From an uncultured Phycisphaerales bacterium (GTDB taxonomy: Bacteria > Planctomycetota > Phycisphaerae > WQYP01), in assembly GCA_903868035.1 (NCBI GenBank), contig CAIPTQ010000039.1, positions 1 through 10,409 of the forward strand: DNA of 10,409 nt, given 5' to 3'. Made by a program: the position numbers and the translations under genes. This document shows, in pieces, positions 447-10,409 of this stretch; the first letter of the stretch is position 1; each line of letters starts with the position of its first letter. A model generated the notes under the pieces. That model searched no databases. It worked only from the letters and a program-made list of their open reading frames with translations, and was not told where the DNA came from.

Positions 447-572
447 GTGTGTTGACGGTCCCCCCCCTCCCCCCCCATTGCCGGCGACACAAACCAGCTT
501 GATGCAAAATTAACGCGATTACCATTGGACCCTCATGGCCGGGGCGTAGACTCTGGCATCGGAGAATTTTTT

Positions 573-902
573 ATGACCACCTTGATCCCGCACACGATTC
601 GGATTCGGATGCCGCAAGCCCAGCATGTGTCCCTGATTGGGGACTTCAACAACTGGCATTCCAACTCGCACCCACTGTTGCAGGTGGCGCCGGGCTTGTG
701 GGAACGCGCGGTGAGCCTGCCGGCGGGGAGACATCGGTATGCTTTTTTTGTGGTGGAGGATTTGCGGAAGAACGGGGGGGCGCTGCGGACGCGGGTGGAG
801 GGTGAGGGGGCGGTGTTGTGGGTGCCGGAGCATCCGGAGCAGGCGGTGAGCGTGACCTCCTATCCGGCGCGGGTGGTCGGGGAGCACAGGGAGGCGGCGT
901 AG
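573..902 (+). CDS. Small stand-alone CBM48 / AMPK-beta-type glycogen-binding domain protein
   Basis: The 109-residue product is almost entirely one early-set, Ig-like carbohydrate-binding domain. Residues 18-28 (HVSLIGDFNNW) and 41-60 (GLWERAVSLPAGRHRYAFFV) match the signature of CBM48, the domain found at the N terminus of isoamylases and branching enzymes and in the beta subunit of AMPK. The usual VDGxWxxDP end is changed to VEDLRKNGG (61-69). No catalytic domain, signal peptide or membrane segment is present, so it probably acts in the cytoplasm as a carbohydrate- or partner-binding module. ATG 573 was chosen because GGAGA at 561-565 lies 7 nt upstream; the frame stays open to a TTG at 525 that has no ribosome binding site. 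The gene appears monocistronic, with a strong promoter at 337-364 and a terminator at 945-981. Binding to glycogen itself is inferred from the family. Confidence 0.78.
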   Translation: MTTLIPHTIRIRMPQAQHVSLIGDFNNWHSNSHPLLQVAPGLWERAVSLPAGRHRYAFFVVEDLRKNGGALRTRVEGEGAVLWVPEHPEQAVSVTSYPARVVGEHREAA

Positions 903-1542: not shown

Positions 1543-1557
1543 GGCGGTTTGAACCCT

Positions 1558-2745
1558 ATGAAAAAACTCGATCGTTTTTTGTTGCGTGACATTCTCTCCG
1601 ACGGCCAGGCCGGCACGGTCTACAAGGCCGAGGAGGTGCTCCCCGGGGACATTCGGCGGTGGGTGGCGCTCAAGGTGCTGCCGGGGGCGCCGGGGGGGGT
1701 GATGACGGGGGATACGGCGGAGGAGAAGCACTTCTTCGGGGAGGTGCGGGTGCTGGCCCAACTGGCGGTGCATCCGCATGTGGTGACGATCTACTCGATG
1801 GGCGTGACTGACGGCTACCCGTGGCTGGCGATGGAATATTCCGGCACGACCCTGGCCCAGCGCATCGGCGAGGGGCCGGCCGATCCGGCCGAGGTCCTGC
1901 GGATGCTGGACCAGGTGGGCCGCGGCCTGCACGTCATGCACGGCCTCAAGCCCCCGCTCATCCACCAGGACATCAAGCCGGCGAACATCCTGGTGGACCA
2001 GGGCGGGAACTACAAGGTGACGGATTTTTCGCTGGCGACGGTGACGGCGGCCGACAAGACGCACGGCCTGGCCACGGTGCGCTATGCCGCCCCGGAGCTG
2101 CTGTCCAACGAATTCGGCCGCGTGGGGCCGGCGACGGACCTGTACGCCCTGGGGCACATGGCCTACGAGATGGCGCTGGGGGCCAAGCTCCACCGGGCGC
2201 AGTTTCCGGCAGTGTTCGAGGGGAACCCGAGCAAGGCGCCCCCGCCGAACAAATGGATGATGTGGCATGCGTCGATCGGCATGAAGCCGCCGGCGATCAG
2301 CGAGGCGGCCCGCGGGTTCCCCGGGGCGCTGTCGGAGGTGATCGCGCGGCTGATGGCCAAGCCGCTGGCGCAGCGGTACGGCTCGGCCGAGGAGCTGCTG
2401 AGCGACCTGGCGGTGCTGCGACACGAGGTGGGTGGCGGCGGAGCGCCCCTCACGCTGGAAGCTCCGGCCCATACGCCGGCACATCCATCCCCCCCACCGT
2501 CCTCGATGGAGAGCGCCCCGGCGGCCAGAGCGCCGGGTGCCGCCGCGCCGGGCGCGGCGGCGGGCATGGGGGGACGCTACTGGGTGCGCCTGCGCGGCCG
2601 CGTGACCGGGCCGTTTGACATGGCAACACTGCAGCGGCAGTTGCGCCAGGGACAAATCTCACGCATGCACCAGGTGAGCACCGACCAGGTGACGTGGAAA
2701 TCGGCGGCGGATGTGGAGGGGCTGTACGGGCCGACAGTGGTGTGA
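1558..2745 (+). CDS. Ser/Thr protein kinase with C-terminal GYF_2 domain
   Basis: The first 280 or so residues form a Hanks-type protein kinase domain. Landmarks are a glycine-loop variant LSDGQAGTVY, the ATP-binding lysine in VALK (K39), the catalytic loop IHQDIKPANILV (D138, K140, N143), the metal-binding aspartate in DFS (D156), APE (178-180) and DLYALG. The catalytic and metal-binding residues are all present, so it may be active, but HRD is HQD, DFG is DFS and the first loop glycine is serine. An Ala/Pro-rich linker (about 300-338) leads to a GYF_2-type domain (341-392: YWVRLRGRVTGPF and later QVTWKSA), which usually binds partners or proline-rich segments. No membrane segment is present. 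The frame also opens at TTG 1549; GAGG at 1541-1544 is 4 nt from TTG and 13 nt from ATG, so the start is uncertain. It follows the toxin by 15 bp and may be co-transcribed with it. Confidence 0.88.
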   Translation: MKKLDRFLLRDILSDGQAGTVYKAEEVLPGDIRRWVALKVLPGAPGGVMTGDTAEEKHFFGEVRVLAQLAVHPHVVTIYSMGVTDGYPWLAMEYSGTTLAQRIGEGPADPAEVLRMLDQVGRGLHVMHGLKPPLIHQDIKPANILVDQGGNYKVTDFSLATVTAADKTHGLATVRYAAPELLSNEFGRVGPATDLYALGHMAYEMALGAKLHRAQFPAVFEGNPSKAPPPNKWMMWHASIGMKPPAISEAARGFPGALSEVIARLMAKPLAQRYGSAEELLSDLAVLRHEVGGGGAPLTLEAPAHTPAHPSPPPSSMESAPAARAPGAAAPGAAAGMGGRYWVRLRGRVTGPFDMATLQRQLRQGQISRMHQVSTDQVTWKSAADVEGLYGPTVV

Positions 2746-2798: not shown

Positions 2799-3707
2799 TT
2801 GAGGCTTCGAGGTTGGTGGTTTTTGCTGGCGGTGCTTGGTGTGGGATGCGCGGGCAACTCGGTGCCACCGGCACCACCGGCGGCATCCGCGCCGGCACAG
2901 GATGTCCTGCACGTGGGACTGCGGCGGAGCAGCTACGGCTATGCGGCGAAAAACAAGGATGATGCCTGGTGGATCGCCCAGGCGAAGGCGTATGCGGCGC
3001 AGTTTCCCGGGGCGGTGCCGACGATCATTGAAATCGTGTCCAACTATGATGACAGCGGGGACGCCAACATCGAATTTCTGGCACCCGCGGGGTACAGGGG
3101 GGACAGGGCGCATATGCGGTTCGGGAATGGCAGCCTGGATCACCAGCGGGCGCTGGCGGCGTATGACCAGGCGGGGGTGAAGGCGATCCTCGAGTTTGAG
3201 CCCGGTGCGGCGGACGTGCCCGCGTGCTTCGATCTGGCGCAGGCGGCATTCGGCAAACACCCGTGCATCATCGGCTACGGGATCGACGGGGAGTGGTACA
3301 AGACAGACGCGGGAACGAACAAGGAAGGCATGCCCATCGGTGATGCGGCGGCGCAGGCGTGGATGGAAAAGGTGTACTCATTCAACCCGGGGTACACGCT
3401 TTTTTTGAAGCACTGGAAGCCCTCGCACATGCCGCCGCATTACCGTGCCGCGGGCCTGTGGTTTTTGAACGACAGCCAGGAATTCGCCACGGTGGGCGAA
3501 TGGATGGCGGACATGAAGAAGTGGGGCGGCGCATTTGCGGGGAGCGACACGGGATACCAGTTTGGCTATCCGGCCGACGGCAAATGGTGGAGCGGGTTGC
3601 AGAACCCGCCGCGGGAGATGGCGGCACGGCTGCGGCAGGAGATCGACTCAACGCGGTATGTGTTCTGGGTGGATTTCACGGCCGGGAAGGTGGCGTTTGA
3701 GAAGTGA
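2799..3707 (+). CDS. Putative lipoprotein with TIM-barrel, glycosidase-like domain
   Basis: The N terminus (RLRGWWFLLAVLGVGC) looks like a signal peptide with a lipobox cysteine at C17, although glycine at the -3 position is not ideal. A Pro/Ala-rich linker reaches residue 34. The rest shows alternating short strands and helices in the manner of a (beta/alpha)8 barrel: HVGLR, TIIEIVSNY, AILEFEPG, CIIGYGIDGEWYK, TLFLKHW, GLWFLNDSQ, FQ/FGYPAD and YVFWVDFT. Acidic residues at strand ends (E132, E134, D163, E165, D225) could be catalytic, as in glycoside hydrolases, but I cannot assign a family or substrate. The TTG start is supported by AGAGGAG (2786-2792) 6 nt upstream. The protein is expected to be anchored at the envelope facing the periplasm. 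It follows the kinase by 53 bp, separated by the heptamer repeat, so co-transcription is possible but unproven. Confidence 0.62.
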   Translation: MRLRGWWFLLAVLGVGCAGNSVPPAPPAASAPAQDVLHVGLRRSSYGYAAKNKDDAWWIAQAKAYAAQFPGAVPTIIEIVSNYDDSGDANIEFLAPAGYRGDRAHMRFGNGSLDHQRALAAYDQAGVKAILEFEPGAADVPACFDLAQAAFGKHPCIIGYGIDGEWYKTDAGTNKEGMPIGDAAAQAWMEKVYSFNPGYTLFLKHWKPSHMPPHYRAAGLWFLNDSQEFATVGEWMADMKKWGGAFAGSDTGYQFGYPADGKWWSGLQNPPREMAARLRQEIDSTRYVFWVDFTAGKVAFEK

Positions 3708-3734
3708 ACAGTGAGTGGTCAGTGGTCAGTGCGT
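3707..3734. repeat. Heptamer tandem repeat (AGTGGTC)n
   Basis: Following the lipoprotein stop are the 7-mers AACAGTG, AGTGGTC, AGTGGTC and AGTGCGT in tandem. The period matches the repeat at 2753-2787 and the unit is related. It fills the whole 26-bp gap between the two convergent genes. No terminator hairpin is seen here. Confidence 0.6.
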
Positions 3735-4642
3735 TACAGTACGATGCTGCGCACGACATTGAGCGGGGACTGGCTGGGAGTATCCTTGGGGTAGATCGAA
3801 CAGCGCATGAATTCGCACAGCGTGCGCGCCCCGATGGACTGGTAGATCGCGTTGGTGCGGGGGTCGTCGACATCCGTGAGGATGAAGCAGTAGCGCAGGC
3901 CGCTGGCCAGCATCTGGGCGCCCAGGGCCGCGCTGACGGCCTTGCCGTAGCCCTGGCCGCGGAACTCGGGCGGGGTGTAGACGAAATTGATCGAGGCGCC
4001 GTTGGGCGTGGGGGCGACCCAGGCGGCCATGGAGACGGGGCGCGGGCTCTTCCAGAAATACAGCAGCCGCTGGGAAATGAGGGTATCGACCACGCCGTCC
4101 ACGGTGCGGCCTTCCATCTCGAACTCGGCCTCCGCGATGAAGCCCTCGACCCACTCGCGGACCAGGGGCCGGTCTTCCGGCGCGGCGACTTCCAGGTGCC
4201 CCTGGCTGGGGAGGGCGTAGTAATTGCGCGCCAGTTGATAGATGCGCTCGGCGCGGCCGAGTTCCCAGTTCTGGCCCGTGCGCTTGGCGTAGGTATGGCC
4301 CAGGAATCCGGCGACGTGGCCGGGGGCGTGGATGTGCTTGAATTTCCAGCCGGCGCCGATGCTGTGATCGACTATGAGCTCGATGACTTCGTGCGTCGCC
4401 CAGGACATGCAGAGTGTTTGATTGGGCAGGCCCACGCCGGCGGCGAGGATGGTGTTGTCCTCCTCGACGGTGAAAAAATTCAAGCCCGGTTGGGGACCGC
4501 CGGCGATGATATCCGGCAGCATGCCCAGGAAGTAGTTGTTCTCGCCTTCACGGATGGAAAGCCAGCGCTTGGCACGCAGGTCGAATTTCCTGGGGTCGGT
4601 ATATGTCACAACGCGGGGAGCGTTGAATTGCACTACAAACAT
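3734..4642 (-). CDS. GNAT-family N-acetyltransferase
   Basis: The C-terminal half is a GNAT domain. It contains SINFVYTPPEFRGQGYGKAV, in which the R/Q-x-x-G-x-G loop (RGQGYG, residues 228-233) binds the pyrophosphate of acetyl-CoA. It is followed by a helix and the strand YCFILTDVDDPRTNAIYQSIG, which is the usual motif B with the YxxxG-like end. The N-terminal half (residues 1-160) contains LNFFTVEEDNTILAAGVGLP and may be a second, degenerate GNAT-like domain, as in several tandem-GNAT proteins. The acceptor substrate cannot be told. I chose ATG 4642; an in-frame ATG at 4669 would add nine residues, and neither has a good ribosome binding site. A possible -10 (TATACT on the minus strand, 4728-4723) lies upstream. 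The gene is convergent to the lipoprotein and divergent from the GTPase, so it is transcribed alone. The long open frame on the plus strand here is its shadow. Confidence 0.82.
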   Translation of the reverse strand: MFVVQFNAPRVVTYTDPRKFDLRAKRWLSIREGENNYFLGMLPDIIAGGPQPGLNFFTVEEDNTILAAGVGLPNQTLCMSWATHEVIELIVDHSIGAGWKFKHIHAPGHVAGFLGHTYAKRTGQNWELGRAERIYQLARNYYALPSQGHLEVAAPEDRPLVREWVEGFIAEAEFEMEGRTVDGVVDTLISQRLLYFWKSPRPVSMAAWVAPTPNGASINFVYTPPEFRGQGYGKAVSAALGAQMLASGLRYCFILTDVDDPRTNAIYQSIGARTLCEFMRCSIYPKDTPSQSPLNVVRSIVL

Positions 4643-4669
4643 AGAACGTATTCCCAGTTGAGCCGCCAT

Positions 4670-4948: not shown

Positions 4949-6307
4949 GTGAGTGAAACATTGACACCGGAATCCCAGCTTCAATCCATGTCGGCGCCCG
5001 CCAGCGATGATGTGCAGGAGAACGTCGCCATCCCGCTGGTAAAACGGGTAACTTGTCCGCATTGCTGGCATGAGTTCCGCCCCGAGCAGGTGCTGTGGGT
5101 CGCCCAGCACGAAGAACTGATGGGGGACTCGGTGCTCAAGGAGGAGGCCTCGCGATTTTTACCCACACGCTTCACGCTCGAAGGGCAGGCCCTCGATGCG
5201 CGGGAAATGGTGTGTACGGCACTGGCGTGTCCGGCCTGCCATCTGGCCCTGCCACGGGTGCTGCTCGAAAACGAGGTGACGTTCATCAGCATCATCGGGT
5301 CGGCCGGGTCCGGTAAGTCCAACTACCTGGCGGCCATGACCTGGGAGCTGCGGCAGCGCCTGGCGCGGGATTTCGGGATCATCTTTGCCGACGGCGACAA
5401 GGAGGCCAACTGGATCTTGAACCGCTATGAGGAAACCCTGTTTCTGCCCGAAGACCCCGAACGCCCGGTCGTGCTCGACAAGACCCGGACCCAGGGGGAC
5501 TTGTACCGCTCGGTGACGATCAACGGGCAGGAAACGCAGTTGCCCAAGCCGTTTTTGTTCAGCCTGCATCCGGCGGCCAATCACCCGCGGGCGGCGCGGC
5601 GCGCCCGCATGGGGCGCATCGTCTGCCTGTACGACAACGCCGGGGAGCATTACAACGTCGGGCAGGACACGGCCCTGACCCCCGTGACCCGGCATCTGGC
5701 GCGGTCCAAGGTGCTGATGTTCCTGCTGGACCCGACCCAGGACCCGCGGTTCCGGGCACGCTGCAAGGCGATTTCGCAGGATCCCCAGATTCTCGAACCG
5801 ATGCAGACGGTGCGGCAGGAGACGATTCTTAGCGAGGCCACGATCCGGTTCCGCAAACATGCGAGCCTGAGCGCCCACCAGAAGGCCAGCCGCCCCCTGC
5901 TGGTGCTGGTGGCCAAGTCGGACATCTGGGGATCGCTGATCGAAGGCGAGGATCTGATCGCCGAACCGGTGACGCGGGCGCTCAAATCGGAGGCCCACCT
6001 GGCCGTGCTGGACCTGGACCGCATCGACCGCATCAGCGGGAAGGTCCGCGAGTTGCTGCTGGGCGTGACGCCCGAGGTGGTCAGCACCGCGGAGGATTTC
6101 GCCGACGAGGTGGTGTACATCCCGGTGAGCGCCCTGGGGCATTCGCCGGAGAAATATCCGGACAAGAACGGGCTGCTGATTAGGCCCAAGGACATCCATC
6201 CGCGGTGGGTGACCGTGCCGTTGCTGTATAGTTACGCCCGCTGGGCGACGGGCCTGATCGCCGGCGTGGGCAAAAACAAACGGAACCGGACGGAACCCGT
6301 AGCGTAA
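4949..6307 (+). CDS. Zinc-ribbon P-loop GTPase (DO-GTPase2-like)
   Basis: The 452-residue protein begins with a zinc-ribbon-like region whose two CxxC knuckles are far apart (C36/C39 in CPHC and C94/C97 in CPAC). A P-loop NTPase domain follows: Walker A GSAGSGKS (117-124), a hydrophobic strand ending in the switch II aspartate in YDNAGEHY (D229), and an N/TKxD-type base-recognition motif LVLVAKSD (322-325, with alanine for asparagine). The order fits a GTPase better than an AAA ATPase, and the pairing with the next gene points to the DO-GTPase2 family of predicted conflict and signalling systems. No membrane segment is present, so it is cytoplasmic and could dock on the two membrane partners downstream. 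GTG 4949 was chosen because GGGAGG (4937-4942) lies 6 nt upstream; a GTG at 4898 would add 17 residues but has no such site. It is the first gene of the operon. The last codons lie inside an extragenic-type repeat. Confidence 0.8.
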   Translation: MSETLTPESQLQSMSAPASDDVQENVAIPLVKRVTCPHCWHEFRPEQVLWVAQHEELMGDSVLKEEASRFLPTRFTLEGQALDAREMVCTALACPACHLALPRVLLENEVTFISIIGSAGSGKSNYLAAMTWELRQRLARDFGIIFADGDKEANWILNRYEETLFLPEDPERPVVLDKTRTQGDLYRSVTINGQETQLPKPFLFSLHPAANHPRAARRARMGRIVCLYDNAGEHYNVGQDTALTPVTRHLARSKVLMFLLDPTQDPRFRARCKAISQDPQILEPMQTVRQETILSEATIRFRKHASLSAHQKASRPLLVLVAKSDIWGSLIEGEDLIAEPVTRALKSEAHLAVLDLDRIDRISGKVRELLLGVTPEVVSTAEDFADEVVYIPVSALGHSPEKYPDKNGLLIRPKDIHPRWVTVPLLYSYARWATGLIAGVGKNKRNRTEPVA

Positions 6308-6330
6308 GCGAGGGCGAGCCGTCTCTCGCC
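6291..6330. repeat. Extragenic-type repeat overlapping the GTPase stop codon
   Basis: The stretch CCCGTAGCGTAAGCGAGGGC (6296-6315) runs through the TAA stop (6305-6307) into a hairpin GGCGAG (6313-6318) / CTCGCC (6325-6330) with a 6-nt loop. From memory, GTAGCGTAAGCGAGGG-like elements are frequent between planctomycete genes. If so, the last residues (TEPVA) are encoded by repeat DNA. The hairpin lacks a T-tract, so it is not a terminator; it may limit or stabilise read-through between the two genes. Confidence 0.45.
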
Positions 6331-6380
6331 ACAAAGGCGGCACCTTCGCGCAGGCGAGGCAGAGCGTACGAGGATGCTCG

Positions 6381-8837
6381 ATGAGCCATGAGATTTACTA
6401 CACCTCCGCCCCCGAAGGCCTCAAGCCTGGCACCAGCGGGTTCTGCACCGTCGCCGCGTCGGATAACATCCCCAAGGCCCTCTGGGACCGCCTCGAAACC
6501 CTCTCGGCCTACCGCCACCAGTTCGGCGCCGGCGGCGCGCCCAACCCCGTCAGCCACGCCCACTGGATTTTGAACATCGCCGGCAAGACCCACCATGTGC
6601 TCTCGCGGATTTGCGATTCGGGCGTGGATCATACCCAGCGCACCAACGCCTTCGCCCATCACCTGGTGCTCGAACCCGCCGACATTGCCGCGGCCCAGGG
6701 CGGACCGGCCTGGCTGCTCGAACAGCCCGGCGTGATGATGGACCGCTGGAACGGGCAGGTCGGGGCGCTGCGCCCCAGCCGCCTGGCGCAGGGGGACATT
6801 TTCGCCGCCTCGCGCGTCTGCCACGCCTGGGCGGCCGCGACGGGGGATGCCGGGTGGGGCGGGCTGCTGGCGGATGTCTTCGCCAAGGTGCCCACGCGGC
6901 CGGTGTGCATCTTGTTCGGACCCGGGCAGGATGTGCTGCCGCTCATCGCCGAGGCGATCGCTCTCCTCCCGCCGGCGGCACGCTGGAACGTGACCTTCAA
7001 CACCTATTTCACCAGCATGCCCACCAGCGCCACGTGCCTGTGGCGCTGCTGCCTGGCCGGCACGCAGGCGGCCCAGACGGGCCTGCGCTACGCCGCCGGC
7101 GGCCTGGTGCTGGACTTGACGGATCGTTCGCGTCTGCCGGCCTTGCCGGCGGGTCCGTATGTGACGATGGCGCGGACGGGCCAGGCCGCCGAGGCGCCCC
7201 GGCCGGCCGCCAAGACCACGCAGCCGACGCTGGCGGAGCTCAAGAACAAGGCGGGCCTGAAAGCCAAGCCGGGGTATCAACCGCCGGTGTTCGATCCGGA
7301 GGGCGATGCCGAGGAGCGGGATACCGAGCGGCGGCGGGAGCGGACGTTTGATTTCGCCCCCCCACCGGAACCGGACCGGACGCGCCCGCCCCTGGAGGAT
7401 TCCTCATATGACCTGCGGGAGGAAGCGCCGGTCGGCGCCCGCGGTGCCGTGCCCAAGGGTCCGGGGCGGATGATGCGCCGTGCCGAGGAGGCCCTGGAGG
7501 AATCGGAGCGCGAGGCGGCGCGAGCGGCGCGGCGGCGGCGCAAGCAGGTGCTGTGGCTGTTCGTCGGGGCGCTGGGGGCCATCGCGCTGGGGTGCGGCCT
7601 GGTCTTCATGGCCGGCCGCAGCGGCGCGCCGCCGGAGCCTCGGGGCGCCGGCGCCACGTACCGCGCCACCCGGCCGGTGGATACCACGCCGATCTTCATC
7701 GTGGAGACCGAGCCGGCGACCGTTCAGACGACGGTCGCAACCACCCAGGCGCCGGCGACCGTGGTGGCCACGACGCAGACGCCGGCCACCATCGTGGCCA
7801 GCCAGACCCGGCCGGTCTATCCGGAAAAACTGGAGTTCACGACCGCCTTGCTCAAGCCCACCCCCAAGGGGCTGACCAACATGCAGTGGCAGCAACTGGC
7901 GTTGCCCGCCGACACGCTCGACCCCCTCCCGGTGACCGGCCTGCGGCTGGCGTTCTTTGCCCGGCAAGCGGACCAACCTGTCGCCGCCGGTGCGGCTACG
8001 TACACGGACAAAGTCCTCGGCACGCTGACGGCCGAGCCGGACGACGCCAAAAAGGGCGTGCGGATTTCCTGGAAGCCCCCGGGCGGGTCGGGCAAGGATA
8101 TCCTCTTTGTGGCCTTGGACCAGGCCAAAAAGCAGGTCGAAATGCAGTGGACGCTGGACGCCAAGAACCTTCCGGCGGCTTCCAATTTTGTGTTCTGGAC
8201 CCTCCAGAACAGCGCGTTGGTGTTGGAGAGTCCGCGCGAAACCAAACAGAAGATCCTGCTCAAGCCGCTGGCGCTCAAGCCGCTGGTTTATACCGGCACT
8301 CAGCCCCAGCCCTGGCCGGCCGATCTGCCCGAATTGCCGGCGGGCGTGGCCATGGCGGCGCTGCCGGGGCTGCCCCCGGGCTGGACGGCGGCCAATGTCA
8401 CGGCGGATAAAAACCCCCAGATTAGTTTCACCAAGCCGACGAGCGTTCTTAATATCGATCCGGTCAAAAATCCCAGCGTGAACGCCTTGTTTCTCCTGAC
8501 CTTCAAGCCCGGCAGCGGCGGCGGGCCGGCGACGGTGGAGAGTACCTACGCCGCCGCGCTCAAGCAAACCCGGGACGATCTGACAACGGCCCAAAAGGAG
8601 CTTGATGACATCAATAAAAAAGTCGATTCTGCCGCCGCCGCCACGCAGGTCGTGGGTGACGGGGGCGGCACTTTCGCCAAACTCAAGGCCCAGCAGGAGG
8701 AAGCCCGGTTGTTGGTGAACGCCTGCGCCGCGGCCGTCGCCGCCTATAACGAGTTGAACGAGTTTGACATTTCCTTCGATCTGGCGGACAAAATGCGCCT
8801 GGCCACGCTGCATTTCCAGCGGACCAAGGCGCCTTGA
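6381..8837 (+). CDS. Single-pass membrane protein with N-terminal GAP1-N2-like domain
   Basis: Residues 1-250 or so match the GAP1-N2 (GTPase-associated protein 1, N-terminal type 2) pattern. The opening EIYYTSAPEGLKPGTSGFCTV is characteristic, with RTNAFAHHL (87-95) and RWNVTFNTYFT (201-211) further on. A charged, Pro/Arg/Glu-rich linker (about 255-388) ends in RRRRK, followed by one membrane helix (390-411). Basic residues just before it place the N terminus in the cytoplasm. Outside are a Thr/Ala/Val-rich linker with a 10-residue repeat (VATTQxPAT, 452-476), a strand-rich region (about 480-715) of no recognised family, and a coiled coil (about 722-792). ATG 6381 has GAGGA (6370-6374) 6 nt upstream. 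The gene follows the GTPase by 73 bp and precedes the third gene by 16 bp. The likely job is to recruit or control the GTPase at the membrane and pass a signal across it; that is inference from family pairing and topology. Confidence 0.78.
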   Translation: MSHEIYYTSAPEGLKPGTSGFCTVAASDNIPKALWDRLETLSAYRHQFGAGGAPNPVSHAHWILNIAGKTHHVLSRICDSGVDHTQRTNAFAHHLVLEPADIAAAQGGPAWLLEQPGVMMDRWNGQVGALRPSRLAQGDIFAASRVCHAWAAATGDAGWGGLLADVFAKVPTRPVCILFGPGQDVLPLIAEAIALLPPAARWNVTFNTYFTSMPTSATCLWRCCLAGTQAAQTGLRYAAGGLVLDLTDRSRLPALPAGPYVTMARTGQAAEAPRPAAKTTQPTLAELKNKAGLKAKPGYQPPVFDPEGDAEERDTERRRERTFDFAPPPEPDRTRPPLEDSSYDLREEAPVGARGAVPKGPGRMMRRAEEALEESEREAARAARRRRKQVLWLFVGALGAIALGCGLVFMAGRSGAPPEPRGAGATYRATRPVDTTPIFIVETEPATVQTTVATTQAPATVVATTQTPATIVASQTRPVYPEKLEFTTALLKPTPKGLTNMQWQQLALPADTLDPLPVTGLRLAFFARQADQPVAAGAATYTDKVLGTLTAEPDDAKKGVRISWKPPGGSGKDILFVALDQAKKQVEMQWTLDAKNLPAASNFVFWTLQNSALVLESPRETKQKILLKPLALKPLVYTGTQPQPWPADLPELPAGVAMAALPGLPPGWTAANVTADKNPQISFTKPTSVLNIDPVKNPSVNALFLLTFKPGSGGGPATVESTYAAALKQTRDDLTTAQKELDDINKKVDSAAAATQVVGDGGGTFAKLKAQQEEARLLVNACAAAVAAYNELNEFDISFDLADKMRLATLHFQRTKAP
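7734..7808 (+). repeat. In-frame 30-bp repeat encoding VATTQxPAT
   Basis: Two 30-bp units (7734-7763 and 7764-7793) and a half unit (7794-7808) encode VATTQAPATV, VATTQTPATI and VASQT. The units differ at many third positions, so the repeat is old or selected at the protein level. It lies just outside the membrane helix, where a flexible, Thr-rich stalk would be expected. Confidence 0.65.
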
Positions 8838-8853
8838 TACAGGAATCCAGCCC

Positions 8854-10409
8854 ATGGCGGACTATCAGCGGGTGATCGAATTTCTCCGGGACGTGCGGCA
8901 GGGCGCCGGCAGCGGCGGCCTCCAGGCCGTGACCGAGGAAATCGCCCATATGGCGGCCGAATACGCCGCCCTGTGCGCGGCGGCCAACGACCGGCTCCGC
9001 AAAAGCACCGGGTACCTCCAGCAGGGCTTGCGCAGCGAGGCGATCCATATCGCCGAGGAATCCCCCAACCTCCTGGATTTGGTCTCGCAGCTCGACCTGC
9101 CCGACCCCGCCTCCTGGGCCGAGTTCTGCTCGAACAACAACCTCCCCGTCCCCCCCGCCCTCCAGATGGAACGCGCCGCCCAGCTCAACGAGGCCTACGC
9201 CCAGGATCAGCCCATGGAGCACCTGCTGGCCCGGCACCGCCTGCTGGCGCTCTCCCGGGCGCCCGTGCGGGAACGCCTCGACGTGATGCGGAAAATCGCC
9301 CAGATGGACCCGGCCAACGCCACCTGGGAAAAGGACATCCGCATCTTCGAACGGGCCCGGCTCAAGGAACTGCCCAGCGCGTTCTACAACGCCGTGAAAA
9401 ATCACGACAACCACGCCATCATGGGGCTGATGCAGGAACTCAACGGCCAGCCGTGGTTCGAGGCGCCCTCGGCGGAATTTCTCACCTCCGTGACCGAAGC
9501 CAGCGAACGCGTCCAGCGGCAGGGCGTCGAGGCCGAACTGCGGAAGCTCGTCGAACCGCTGCGCGAGGCCTACGCCGCCCGCTCGCTCCAGGAATGCCAG
9601 GCCCTCGTCCAGCGGTGGAAGAACGCCATGGCGGCCGCGGGCGTGGCCCACGTCGCCGGCGAATTGCTCGACGAGATTCGCCCGGTCGTCGCGTTCATCA
9701 GCGAACAGACGAAGCGCGACGAGTATATCAAGCGTTTCCAGGACTCCTGCAAAACCTTCACCCAGATGCTCGACGCCGGCGCGCCCGATGTCCAGTTGGA
9801 GGCCGGTTACGCCCGCCTCAAGGAATTCAAGGCCGAGATTCCCGAAGACCTCACCCGCCGCTACCTCAACCAGCGCCAGGGCCGGCGCCAGGACGCCGAC
9901 CGCCGCCACAAGCTGCGCCTGGCGACCATCGCCGGCGTGTTCCTCGTGATCCTCGTCATCGGGCTGGTCGTGGCGTGGATTCTGCTCCGCTCCTCCAACG
10001 CCGAAAAGTGGGCCCGGCAAATCAACGCCGCCGTGGCCCTCCACACCGAGGACGGCCTGAAGGAGGCCCAGAAGCACGTCGATGAGCTCCAAGCCTCCAA
10101 CGCCGCCCTGCTCAAGGAGCCGGTCGTGGCCAAGGCCGTCTCGGCGCTGCAGGTGGCCCAGCAAAAGTTCGCCACCGACGCGGCGAACCTGAAGGCCGAA
10201 ACCGCCAAGGTCGAAAAAACCCGCGCCGCCGCCGCCCTGGTCCTCGCCAATCCCAACGCCGCCATGGAGGAGATTCGCGCCAGCGCCGGCGAACTCGACC
10301 CCGTGCTCAGCCAAGCCGCCGAAATTCTCAAGGAGGGCGAGTGGGCCGACCCGGATGGCCAACTGCGGGCCGCGCTCGCCGGGGCCGTCTCGGTCCGCCG
10401 GAATATGCA
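8854..10409 (+). CDS. Helical single-pass membrane protein of the GTPase operon (3' partial)
   Basis: The frame stays open from ATG 8854 to the window end, giving 518 codons without a stop; the C terminus is missing. AGGA (8841-8844) lies 9 nt upstream and the gap to the previous gene is 16 bp, so it belongs to the same operon. Residues 1-350 are almost wholly helical, rich in Ala, Glu, Arg and Gln, with no motif I recognise; the opening MADYQRVIEFLRDVRQG looks like a short conserved adaptor helix. One membrane helix (about 356-378, IAGVFLVILVIGLVVAWILL) follows a basic stretch (RRHKLR), so the N terminus is cytoplasmic. The part after it (EAQKHVDELQASNAALLKEP, AETAKVEKTRAAAALVL) is a predicted coiled coil or helical repeat outside the membrane. 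Its topology mirrors that of the GAP1-N2 protein, so the two may pair. No enzymatic role can be seen. Confidence 0.8.
   Translation, partial: MADYQRVIEFLRDVRQGAGSGGLQAVTEEIAHMAAEYAALCAAANDRLRKSTGYLQQGLRSEAIHIAEESPNLLDLVSQLDLPDPASWAEFCSNNNLPVPPALQMERAAQLNEAYAQDQPMEHLLARHRLLALSRAPVRERLDVMRKIAQMDPANATWEKDIRIFERARLKELPSAFYNAVKNHDNHAIMGLMQELNGQPWFEAPSAEFLTSVTEASERVQRQGVEAELRKLVEPLREAYAARSLQECQALVQRWKNAMAAAGVAHVAGELLDEIRPVVAFISEQTKRDEYIKRFQDSCKTFTQMLDAGAPDVQLEAGYARLKEFKAEIPEDLTRRYLNQRQGRRQDADRRHKLRLATIAGVFLVILVIGLVVAWILLRSSNAEKWARQINAAVALHTEDGLKEAQKHVDELQASNAALLKEPVVAKAVSALQVAQQKFATDAANLKAETAKVEKTRAAAALVLANPNAAMEEIRASAGELDPVLSQAAEILKEGEWADPDGQLRAALAGAVSVRRNM

What the first reader, a model, noticed from the sequence alone, without database searches (positions are those of the whole stretch)
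4949..10409. Membrane-anchored GTPase module: zinc-ribbon GTPase, GAP1-N2 transmembrane protein and a long helical transmembrane partner
The sequence shows one soluble P-loop GTPase with a split zinc ribbon, then two large bitopic proteins, both N-in, with coiled coils on the outer side. From memory of the families, DO-GTPase2 and GAP1-N2 are paired in predicted NTP-dependent conflict or signalling systems of multicellular-like bacteria. Here GAP1-N2 is fused to a membrane helix, a Thr-rich stalk and an unassigned extracytoplasmic domain, and the third gene is not a family I know. This suggests a device that couples an envelope signal to a GTPase switch, or the reverse. The operon continues beyond the window, where an effector could lie.
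Basis: partly seen in the sequence, partly recalled or inferred. Interest (0 to 1): 0.82.

Follow-up and report, generated by a model that had tools for sequence, protein, structure and literature searches.

The report
GTPase switch for membrane motors, pili
Planctomycete bacteria carry a conserved three-gene, membrane-anchored GTPase module whose neighbours are often parts of an ion-driven motor or a pilus, which suggests that it switches surface machines on and off.

The parts
4949..6307 (+). DO-GTPase2-type zinc-ribbon GTPase (start GTG 4949 with GGGAGG upstream; ATG 4988 possible)
   Evidence: PF19993 26.9-27.1 bits vs cut-off 27; 1847 homologues at E<=1e-3, a capped search
5054..5065 (+). 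first half of split zinc ribbon, CPHC
   Evidence: cysteines conserved in 90% or more of 26
5228..5239 (+). second half of split zinc ribbon, CPAC
   Evidence: cysteines invariant in 26
5297..5320 (+). P-loop GSAGSGKS
5633..5647 (+). DxxG plus conserved Glu, DNAGE
   Evidence: invariant in 26 of 26, window included
5915..5923 (+). KSD, candidate guanine-specificity motif
   Evidence: K and D invariant in 26; role recalled
6381..8837 (+). GAP1-N2 protein, single-pass, N-in
   Evidence: PF20013 88.5 bits, PF20014 57.9 bits
6381..7226 (+). GAP1-N2 + GAP1-M region (residues 1-282), DENN/TagF-like in predicted structure
7548..7604 (+). membrane helix of GAP1 (390-408)
   Evidence: hydropathy and positive-inside rule; a helix after residue 255 in all 60 GAP1 proteins listed, window included
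7605..7814 (+). Thr-rich low-confidence stalk
   Evidence: 16 Thr in 70 residues; pLDDT under 50 at 419-467 and 469-472
7815..8834 (+). GAP1 ectodomain: beta-rich domain, helical hairpin, beta strands
   Evidence: model; its profile finds 5 of 130 GAP1 ORFs and one fragment
8854..10409 (+). gene 3: all-helical cytoplasmic domain, membrane helix and helical outer part, cut by window end
   Evidence: 19 homologues of similar length; model pLDDT 85.8
9928..9984 (+). membrane helix of gene 3 (359-377)
1549..2745 (+). Ser/Thr kinase with C-terminal GYF_2 domain, likely component, separated from the GTPase by two other genes
   Evidence: Pkinase 110 bits, GYF_2 27.9 bits, cut-off 25.8; GYF-TM profile 73 bits; directly upstream of the GTPase in L001, L002, L151

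Best explanation
The three genes are the core of a membrane-anchored GTPase switch that controls an energised envelope machine. Shown: a DO-GTPase2, a bitopic GAP1-N2/M protein and a bitopic helical protein form a conserved co-directional unit in Planctomycetota. Shown: the unit is linked to different force-generating gene sets in different clades: most often a MotA/TolQ/ExbB-family gene with two genes for one-helix, Asp-bearing proteins and a membrane protein with GYF domains; in one clade a GYF-GspE/PilB-type ATPase; in the window's own clade a GYF-kinase, an FHA protein and Tad pilus genes. Inferred: GAP1-N2/M binds the GTPase directly as its regulator, with a DENN-like fold; gene 3's cytoplasmic helical domain reads the GTPase state; the GAP1 and gene 3 ectodomains touch each other or the cell wall and carry the signal across the membrane; GYF domains are the adaptor that joins the core to whichever machine is present. 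The confidence is for control of an envelope machine, not for each molecular step.
For: Linkage of the trio: 49 of 52 loci; strong gene 3 hits in 10 of 246 genomes, all among the 13 GTPase genomes, at least one copy on the GTPase contig (hypergeometric P 1.5e-15). MotA-family gene (PF01618 43.2 and 46.5 bits, cut-off 22.9) in 26 of 49 loci against about 0.8 expected from 58 MotA genes in 68.6 Mb of 12 genomes. Strong Rod1 hits (E below 1e-29) in 6 of 246 genomes, all 6 GTPase-positive, 5 on the GTPase contig (P 5.9e-9). Invariant Asp at the start of the single membrane helix in 8 of 8 Rod1 and 8 of 8 Rod2 aligned. Motor-linked loci lie on both sides of the midpoint of the GTPase tree, 11 of 25 and 16 of 57 rows. 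GYF_2 + T2SSE fusion directly after gene 3 in 4 of 4 scanned loci (322-326 bits). In G001: RcpC/CpaB, T2SSE, T2SSF x2, FHA, kinase-GYF, GTPase, GAP1, gene 3, T2SSE, TadE, Tad. In L001 and L151: T2SSE, T2SSF x2, FHA, kinase-GYF, GTPase, GAP1, partly by phmmer match only. The window joins these three with 100/100 support.
Against: No biochemistry or phenotype. 23 of 49 loci show no MotA gene; of these one has Tad genes and four the GYF-ATPase, so for 18 no machine was seen within the locus. The Tad link rests on three loci of one clade; in L151 no Tad gene follows gene 3, L001 ends in GAP1, and the window shows no Tad gene. T2SSE genes are common (7-17 per genome). Rod1 was searched with an alignment taken from GTPase-linked loci, which favours hits there; 16 further genomes have weaker Rod1-like hits (E 1e-15 to 1e-6), most without the GTPase. 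The Rod proteins do not match ExbD/TolR or MotB in Pfam or solved structures; their stator role is inferred from position, topology and the Asp. The A3 MotA profile found no solved structure at E<=0.01. The DENN/TagF likeness is structural only. The kinase of L002 has GYF_2 at 20.5 bits, under the cut-off 25.8, and the about 1000-aa kinase of L046 has none.
Confidence: 0.5

Rival explanations
1. It is a conflict (anti-invader) system as proposed for DO-GTPase/GAP1-N2 systems: the ectodomains or gene 3 sense the invader, the GTPase sets a threshold, and the exchangeable neighbours (motor, trypsin, kinase, ATPase) are effectors; the motor would act like the Zorya ZorAB channel.
For: Published prediction for the family, with planctomycete GYF-trypsin and GYF-TM partners (PMC7159879, section 29); GYF-trypsin in L028 and an M56 peptidase beside L025; the neighbours change between clades, as expected of variable effectors; sporadic occurrence (22 of 198 class genomes, 13 of 246 phylum genomes); weak ZorA matches of the MotA protein (20.6 bits).
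Against: No PADLOC match for GAP1 or gene 3, only weak generic ones for the GTPase; the MotA protein is about 290 aa, without a long tail; nearly always one copy per genome (22 of 22, where at most 8 candidates per genome were scored; 12 of 12 positive genomes; two in G235); no nuclease or known toxin among the neighbours scanned.
Confidence: 0.3
2. It is an envelope-stress or cell-wall maintenance module (Tol-Pal or PSP-like): the ion-driven proteins transmit force across the periplasm for envelope integrity or division, and the GTPase is a stress sensor.
For: MotA/TolQ/ExbB family protein with two one-helix neighbours; a DO-GTPase family member is noted beside pspF operons and said to be predicted to act in membrane-related stress (PMC11237479, one passage seen).
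Against: Sporadic distribution argues against an essential envelope role (13 of 246); Tad and GspE-type partners are not expected.
Confidence: 0.13
3. Only the GTPase-GAP1-gene 3 trio is a unit; motor, Tad and GYF genes are neighbours without function in it.
For: 23 of 49 loci lack MotA; in 5 of 27 MotA loci it is upstream or on the other strand.
Against: 26 found against about 0.8 expected; strong Rod1 hits only in GTPase genomes; GYF_2 domains recur in the TM protein, kinase, ATPase and trypsin partners.
Confidence: 0.07

Closest known systems
DO-GTPase/GAP1-N2 systems (Kaur et al. 2020, PMC7159879)
   Same: Zinc-ribbon DO-GTPase followed by GAP1-N2 protein; GAP1 fused to C-terminal membrane helices; planctomycete members with GYF proteins fused to trypsin or TM region; kinases noted in actinobacterial GAP1-N2 neighbourhoods.
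   Different: No fibronectin-III match in the three proteins; a conserved helical bitopic third protein (the paper's all-helical GASH component belongs to GAP1-N1 systems; gene 3 was not compared with it beyond the Pfam scan); MotA-family motor, GYF-GspE ATPase and Tad links: MotA, ExbB, TolQ, TolR, proton channel, pilus, pili and secretion ATPase occur 0 times in the main text; figures and supplements not seen.
MglA GTPase with the AglRQS motor of Myxococcus
   Same: A GTPase linked to a TolQ-family motor with one TolQ-like and two partner proteins (AglR PF01618, AglQ and AglS PF02472; MglA named as a cytosolic link; PMC3169522, passages seen). MglB as regulator and MglA control of pili are recalled.
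   Different: Different GTPase family, membrane-anchored regulator, partner proteins without ExbD/TolR match.
Zorya ZorAB
   Same: MotA-family channel with MotB-like partner (PMC11890865 and others, search listing only).
   Different: Weak ZorA score (20.6 bits), one channel plus two partners, GTPase core.
DENN-domain GTPase regulators and bacterial TagF
   Different: No detectable sequence relationship to TagF; DENN sequences were not compared; no nucleotide-exchange data.

Membership tests
DO-GTPase (type 2) | Pfam DO-GTPase2 profile | tested here: met
   27.1 vs cut-off 27, 26.9 with the longest start, so borderline; 24 of 26 aligned match at E<=0.001
DO-GTPase (type 2) | TRAFAC-type P-loop, DxxG with conserved Glu | tested here: met
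   GSAGSGKS and DNAGE
DO-GTPase (type 2) | N-terminal zinc ribbon(s) | tested here: met
   one split ribbon CPHC...CPAC; a further N-terminal Cys cluster is in some relatives, not here
DO-GTPase (type 2) | GTP binding and hydrolysis | not testable with these tools
   no experiment
GAP1-N2 system | GAP1-N2 and GAP1-M domains in the gene after the GTPase | tested here: met
   88.5 and 57.9 bits over cut-off 24
GAP1-N2 system | third globular GAP1-C domain | tested here: inconclusive
   no such match in the Pfam scan at E<=1; whether Pfam holds a model of it was not checked
GAP1-N2 system | fibronectin-III repeat component | tested here: inconclusive
GAP1-N2 system | planctomycete partner with GYF domains | tested here: met
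   GYF-kinase in the window, two genes away; a match to the GYF-TM cluster profile over 35 bits in 41 of 49 loci, kinases and ATPases with GYF included
MotA/TolQ/ExbB motor (relatives, not the window) | PF01618 profile and four membrane helices | tested here: met
   43.2 and 46.5 bits vs 22.9 in the two scanned; four hydrophobic segments in L039
MotA/TolQ/ExbB motor (relatives, not the window) | ExbD/TolR/MotB-type partner | tested here: inconclusive
   one N-terminal helix and invariant Asp; only coiled-coil-type matches in Pfam and PDB
Zorya | ZorA/ZorB profiles | tested here: inconclusive
   MotA protein 20.6 bits to ZorA1; Rod1 17.2 bits to ZorB1
Tad pilus cluster (close relatives, not the window) | TadA-type ATPase, two T2SSF proteins, CpaB, TadE | tested here: met
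   PF00437 203 bits, PF00482 56-61 bits, PF07811 25.5, PF16976 45.9 in genome G001
DENN domain | DENN fold over residues 1-282 | tested here: inconclusive
MglA/MglB-Agl | MglA-type GTPase with MglB regulator | not tested
   claimed only as 'works like', not membership

The most novel reading that the evidence does not exclude
A bacterial G-protein module with a membrane-anchored DENN-like regulator licenses envelope machines interchangeably: an ion-driven MotA-type motor in many planctomycete clades, a GspE-type ATPase or a Tad pilus in others, with GYF domains as the exchangeable plug. This would be an independent counterpart of MglA control of gliding and pili, and would recast DO-GTPase/GAP1-N2 systems as surface-machine switches.
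Probability: 0.3. Interest if true: 0.86.

Novelty: new variant of a known kind. Interest (0 to 1): 0.68.

Why it matters
In the papers found here the family is known from prediction and is read as antiviral. A recurrent link to a MotA-type motor and to pilus-type ATPases gives a concrete alternative that a deletion can test, in a phylum with few studied surface machines (recalled). If the DENN-like reading is right, it would also tie a class of eukaryotic GTPase regulators to bacterial GTPase control.

Tried and rejected

Rows dropped: the GAP1 tally leaves out 7 of 80 loci with under 800 bases after the GTPase; the trio tally uses 52 of 80 loci with 6 kb or more; the motor tally 49 of 80 with 8.5 kb or more. 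One search kept 80 of 216 confirmed relatives. Trio exceptions: L026 and L043 (no GAP1) and L067 (no gene 3). In 14 of the 49 trio loci a stretch of over 600 bases separates two of the three genes; L024 (705 and 870 bases) and L069 (gene 3 of 1320 bases beside a full-length GAP1) have short frames. Weak gene 3 hits in 10 of the 20 matched genomes cover only model columns 288-457 and were not counted. Gene 3 was not found in G209, G297 and G308, whose GTPase contigs are under 8 kb.
Full report
What is in the window. On the + strand, 4949-6307 encodes a GTPase with a split zinc ribbon, 6381-8837 a GAP1-N2/GAP1-M protein with a single membrane helix, and 8854 to the window end an all-helical protein with a single membrane helix, here gene 3. 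Gaps are 73 and 16 bases. The DO-GTPase2 profile scores at its cut-off (26.9 and 27.1 against 27), and 24 of the 26 aligned sequences, window included, match it. GAP1-N2 and GAP1-M score 88.5 and 57.9 bits over cut-offs of 24. Gene 3 has no Pfam or NCBIfam match over a cut-off and no PADLOC match; the protein search, which takes only proteins of similar length, gave 19 homologues. Its predicted structure has mean pLDDT 85.8 and is wholly helical, with one long helix (331-395) that holds the membrane segment at 359-377. Both bitopic proteins have more Lys/Arg before than after the helix (7:2 and 6:3), so the N-terminus is predicted inside.

The trio is a real unit. A scan of genome contigs with the GTPase alignment gave 216 relatives, of which 80 loci were kept, 78 of them Planctomycetota by record title. 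Of 73 loci with at least 800 bases after the GTPase, 67 have GAP1 starting within 1.5 kb; of 52 with at least 6 kb, 49 have GAP1 and gene 3 in order on the same strand (exceptions L026, L043, L067), 14 of them with a stretch of over 600 bases in between. In a draw of 246 genomes of the phylum, the GTPase is in 13, GAP1-N2 in 19, 18 over the cut-off, and gene 3 in 20 at E<=0.001, strongly (E below 1e-50) in 10. These 10 are all among the 13, each with a copy on the GTPase contig; G337 has a second copy elsewhere (hypergeometric P 1.5e-15). The other ten match only helical columns 288-457 and were not counted. Five genomes have GAP1-N2 over the cut-off without this GTPase subfamily. In the class draw the GTPase is in 22 of 198 genomes, once each.

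What surrounds it elsewhere. After gene 3 many planctomycete loci carry a protein with GYF_2 domains (67.7 bits in the one scanned) and membrane helices, then a MotA/TolQ/ExbB-family protein (PF01618, 43.2 and 46.5 bits in the two scanned, cut-off 22.9), then two proteins with one N-terminal membrane helix and a coiled coil, called Rod1 and Rod2 here. The MotA gene is in 26 of 49 loci with at least 8.5 kb of room; 24 and 22 of those 26 also show Rod1 and Rod2. From 58 MotA genes in 12 genomes of 68.6 Mb about 0.8 would be expected. In 22 of all 27 motor loci it is downstream and co-directional; in L004, L005, L047, L071 and L077 it is not. Rod1 matches 22 of 246 genomes at E<=1e-6; the six strong ones (E below 1e-29) are all GTPase-positive, 5 on the same contig, and the 16 weaker ones lie elsewhere. 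Each Rod has an Asp invariant in the 8 sequences aligned, at the start of its helix. That is what one expects of stator partners, but no profile ties them to ExbD, TolR or MotB.

In the Fuerstiella-type clade (L030, L044, L055, L063, L070) gene 3 and GAP1 are short; in L030, read closely, both end at their membrane helix (377 and 368 residues; lengths of the others). The next gene fuses GYF_2 to a T2SSE ATPase domain in 4 of 4 scanned loci (322-326 bits); L044, not scanned, runs off its contig. In L028 the GYF protein carries a trypsin domain, as the published survey says for planctomycetes, and an M56 peptidase gene follows in L025. Of the 23 loci without MotA, one has Tad genes and four the GYF-ATPase; in 18 no machine was seen.

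The window's own clade. The GTPase tree puts the window with L001, L002 and L151 with 100/100 support. In these three, the genes before the GTPase are a T2SSE ATPase, two T2SSF proteins, an FHA protein and a kinase with a C-terminal GYF_2 domain, by Pfam in G001 (the genome of L002), by Pfam and phmmer in L151, and by phmmer and own profiles in L001. In G001 the array begins with RcpC/CpaB and continues after gene 3 with T2SSE, TadE and Tad proteins, which makes it a Tad-pilus cluster with the GTPase module inside. In L151 no Tad gene follows gene 3. The kinase's GYF_2 match is 28.4 bits in L151 but 20.5, under the cut-off of 25.8, in L002. The window holds the same kinase at 1549-2745 (Pkinase 110 bits, GYF_2 27.9 bits; 73 bits to the GYF-TM profile), but two genes, an unassigned putative exported protein and a GNAT on the other strand, separate it from the GTPase, and no Tad gene is visible. 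What follows gene 3 here is unknown. G001 has no Rod1 match, and its three MotA genes lie on other contigs.

How it most likely works. Inferred: the soluble GTPase is held at the membrane by GAP1-N2/M, which sets its nucleotide state; gene 3, with a long cytoplasmic helical domain, reads it; GYF domains on a membrane protein, an ATPase or a kinase connect the core to the machine present in that clade. The shortness of both proteins in one clade suggests that the ectodomains work together and that the cytoplasmic switch can do without them; L069, with a short gene 3 beside a full-length GAP1, is against this.

What is known. Kaur et al. 2020 (PMC7159879; section 29 read in full, abstract and passages elsewhere) defined DO-GTPase/GAP1-N2 systems, described membrane-fused GAP1, planctomycete GYF-trypsin or GYF-TM proteins and actinobacterial kinases, and proposed conflict functions. 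Its main text has no occurrence of MotA, ExbB, TolQ, TolR, proton channel, pilus, pili, DENN, longin or TagF; its figures and supplements were not seen. Searches for GAP1-N2, DO-GTPase, GAP1-N1/GASH/GTPase-associated protein 1, planctomycete with MotA, ExbB and GTPase, planctomycete with Tad pili or GYF domain and DENN with TagF listed no paper whose title or abstract start describes these links; most listed papers were not opened, and the library holds only open-licence papers. A 2025 survey of MotAB homologues (PMC12505986) has no occurrence of GTPase or GYF (passages). The GTPase-plus-motor logic resembles AglRQS of Myxococcus, where one TolQ-like and two TolR-like proteins form the motor and MglA is drawn on the cytosolic side (PMC3169522, passages seen).

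Verdict. The addition here is the conserved third protein, the kinase in the window, and the link of the family to a motor, a pilus-type ATPase or a Tad pilus. I rate it a new variant of a known kind.

Noticed in passing
window 525-902: Small protein with a CBM48/AMPK-type glycogen-binding domain (33.6 bits), unrelated to the module as far as seen.
   Followed up: no
window 2799-3707 and 3734-4669: An unassigned putative exported protein (+) and a GNAT acetyltransferase (-) sit between the GYF-kinase and the GTPase, where L001, L002 and L151 have no gene.
   Followed up: partly
L026, L043, L017, L038: A sub-clade of GTPases without a GAP1 next door; in L026 a PriA helicase gene lies 0.7 kb downstream.
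   Followed up: partly
L046, L048, L058, L062, L065, L080: A clade (Rhodopirellula/Stieleria and related records) with a kinase of about 1000 aa upstream and no motor; five of the six have a protein of about 870 aa downstream, with one membrane helix and no Pfam match in the one scanned (L046).
   Followed up: no
window 6381-8837, before the membrane helix, and relatives P0122-P0150: Many GAP1 linkers hold a short Y-[DEG]-L motif; it could be a docking site. Not tested against chance.
   Followed up: no
L004 14047-15483, L031 13646-14608, L053 14379-16328: Extra proteins without Pfam match between GAP1 and gene 3; the one in L031 looks exported, with a coiled-coil-like C-terminal part, but has no sequence match to the GAP1 ectodomain.
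   Followed up: partly
41 of 294 phylum genomes: TagF_N (PF09867) proteins, known from type VI secretion, occur in many planctomycete genomes.
   Followed up: no
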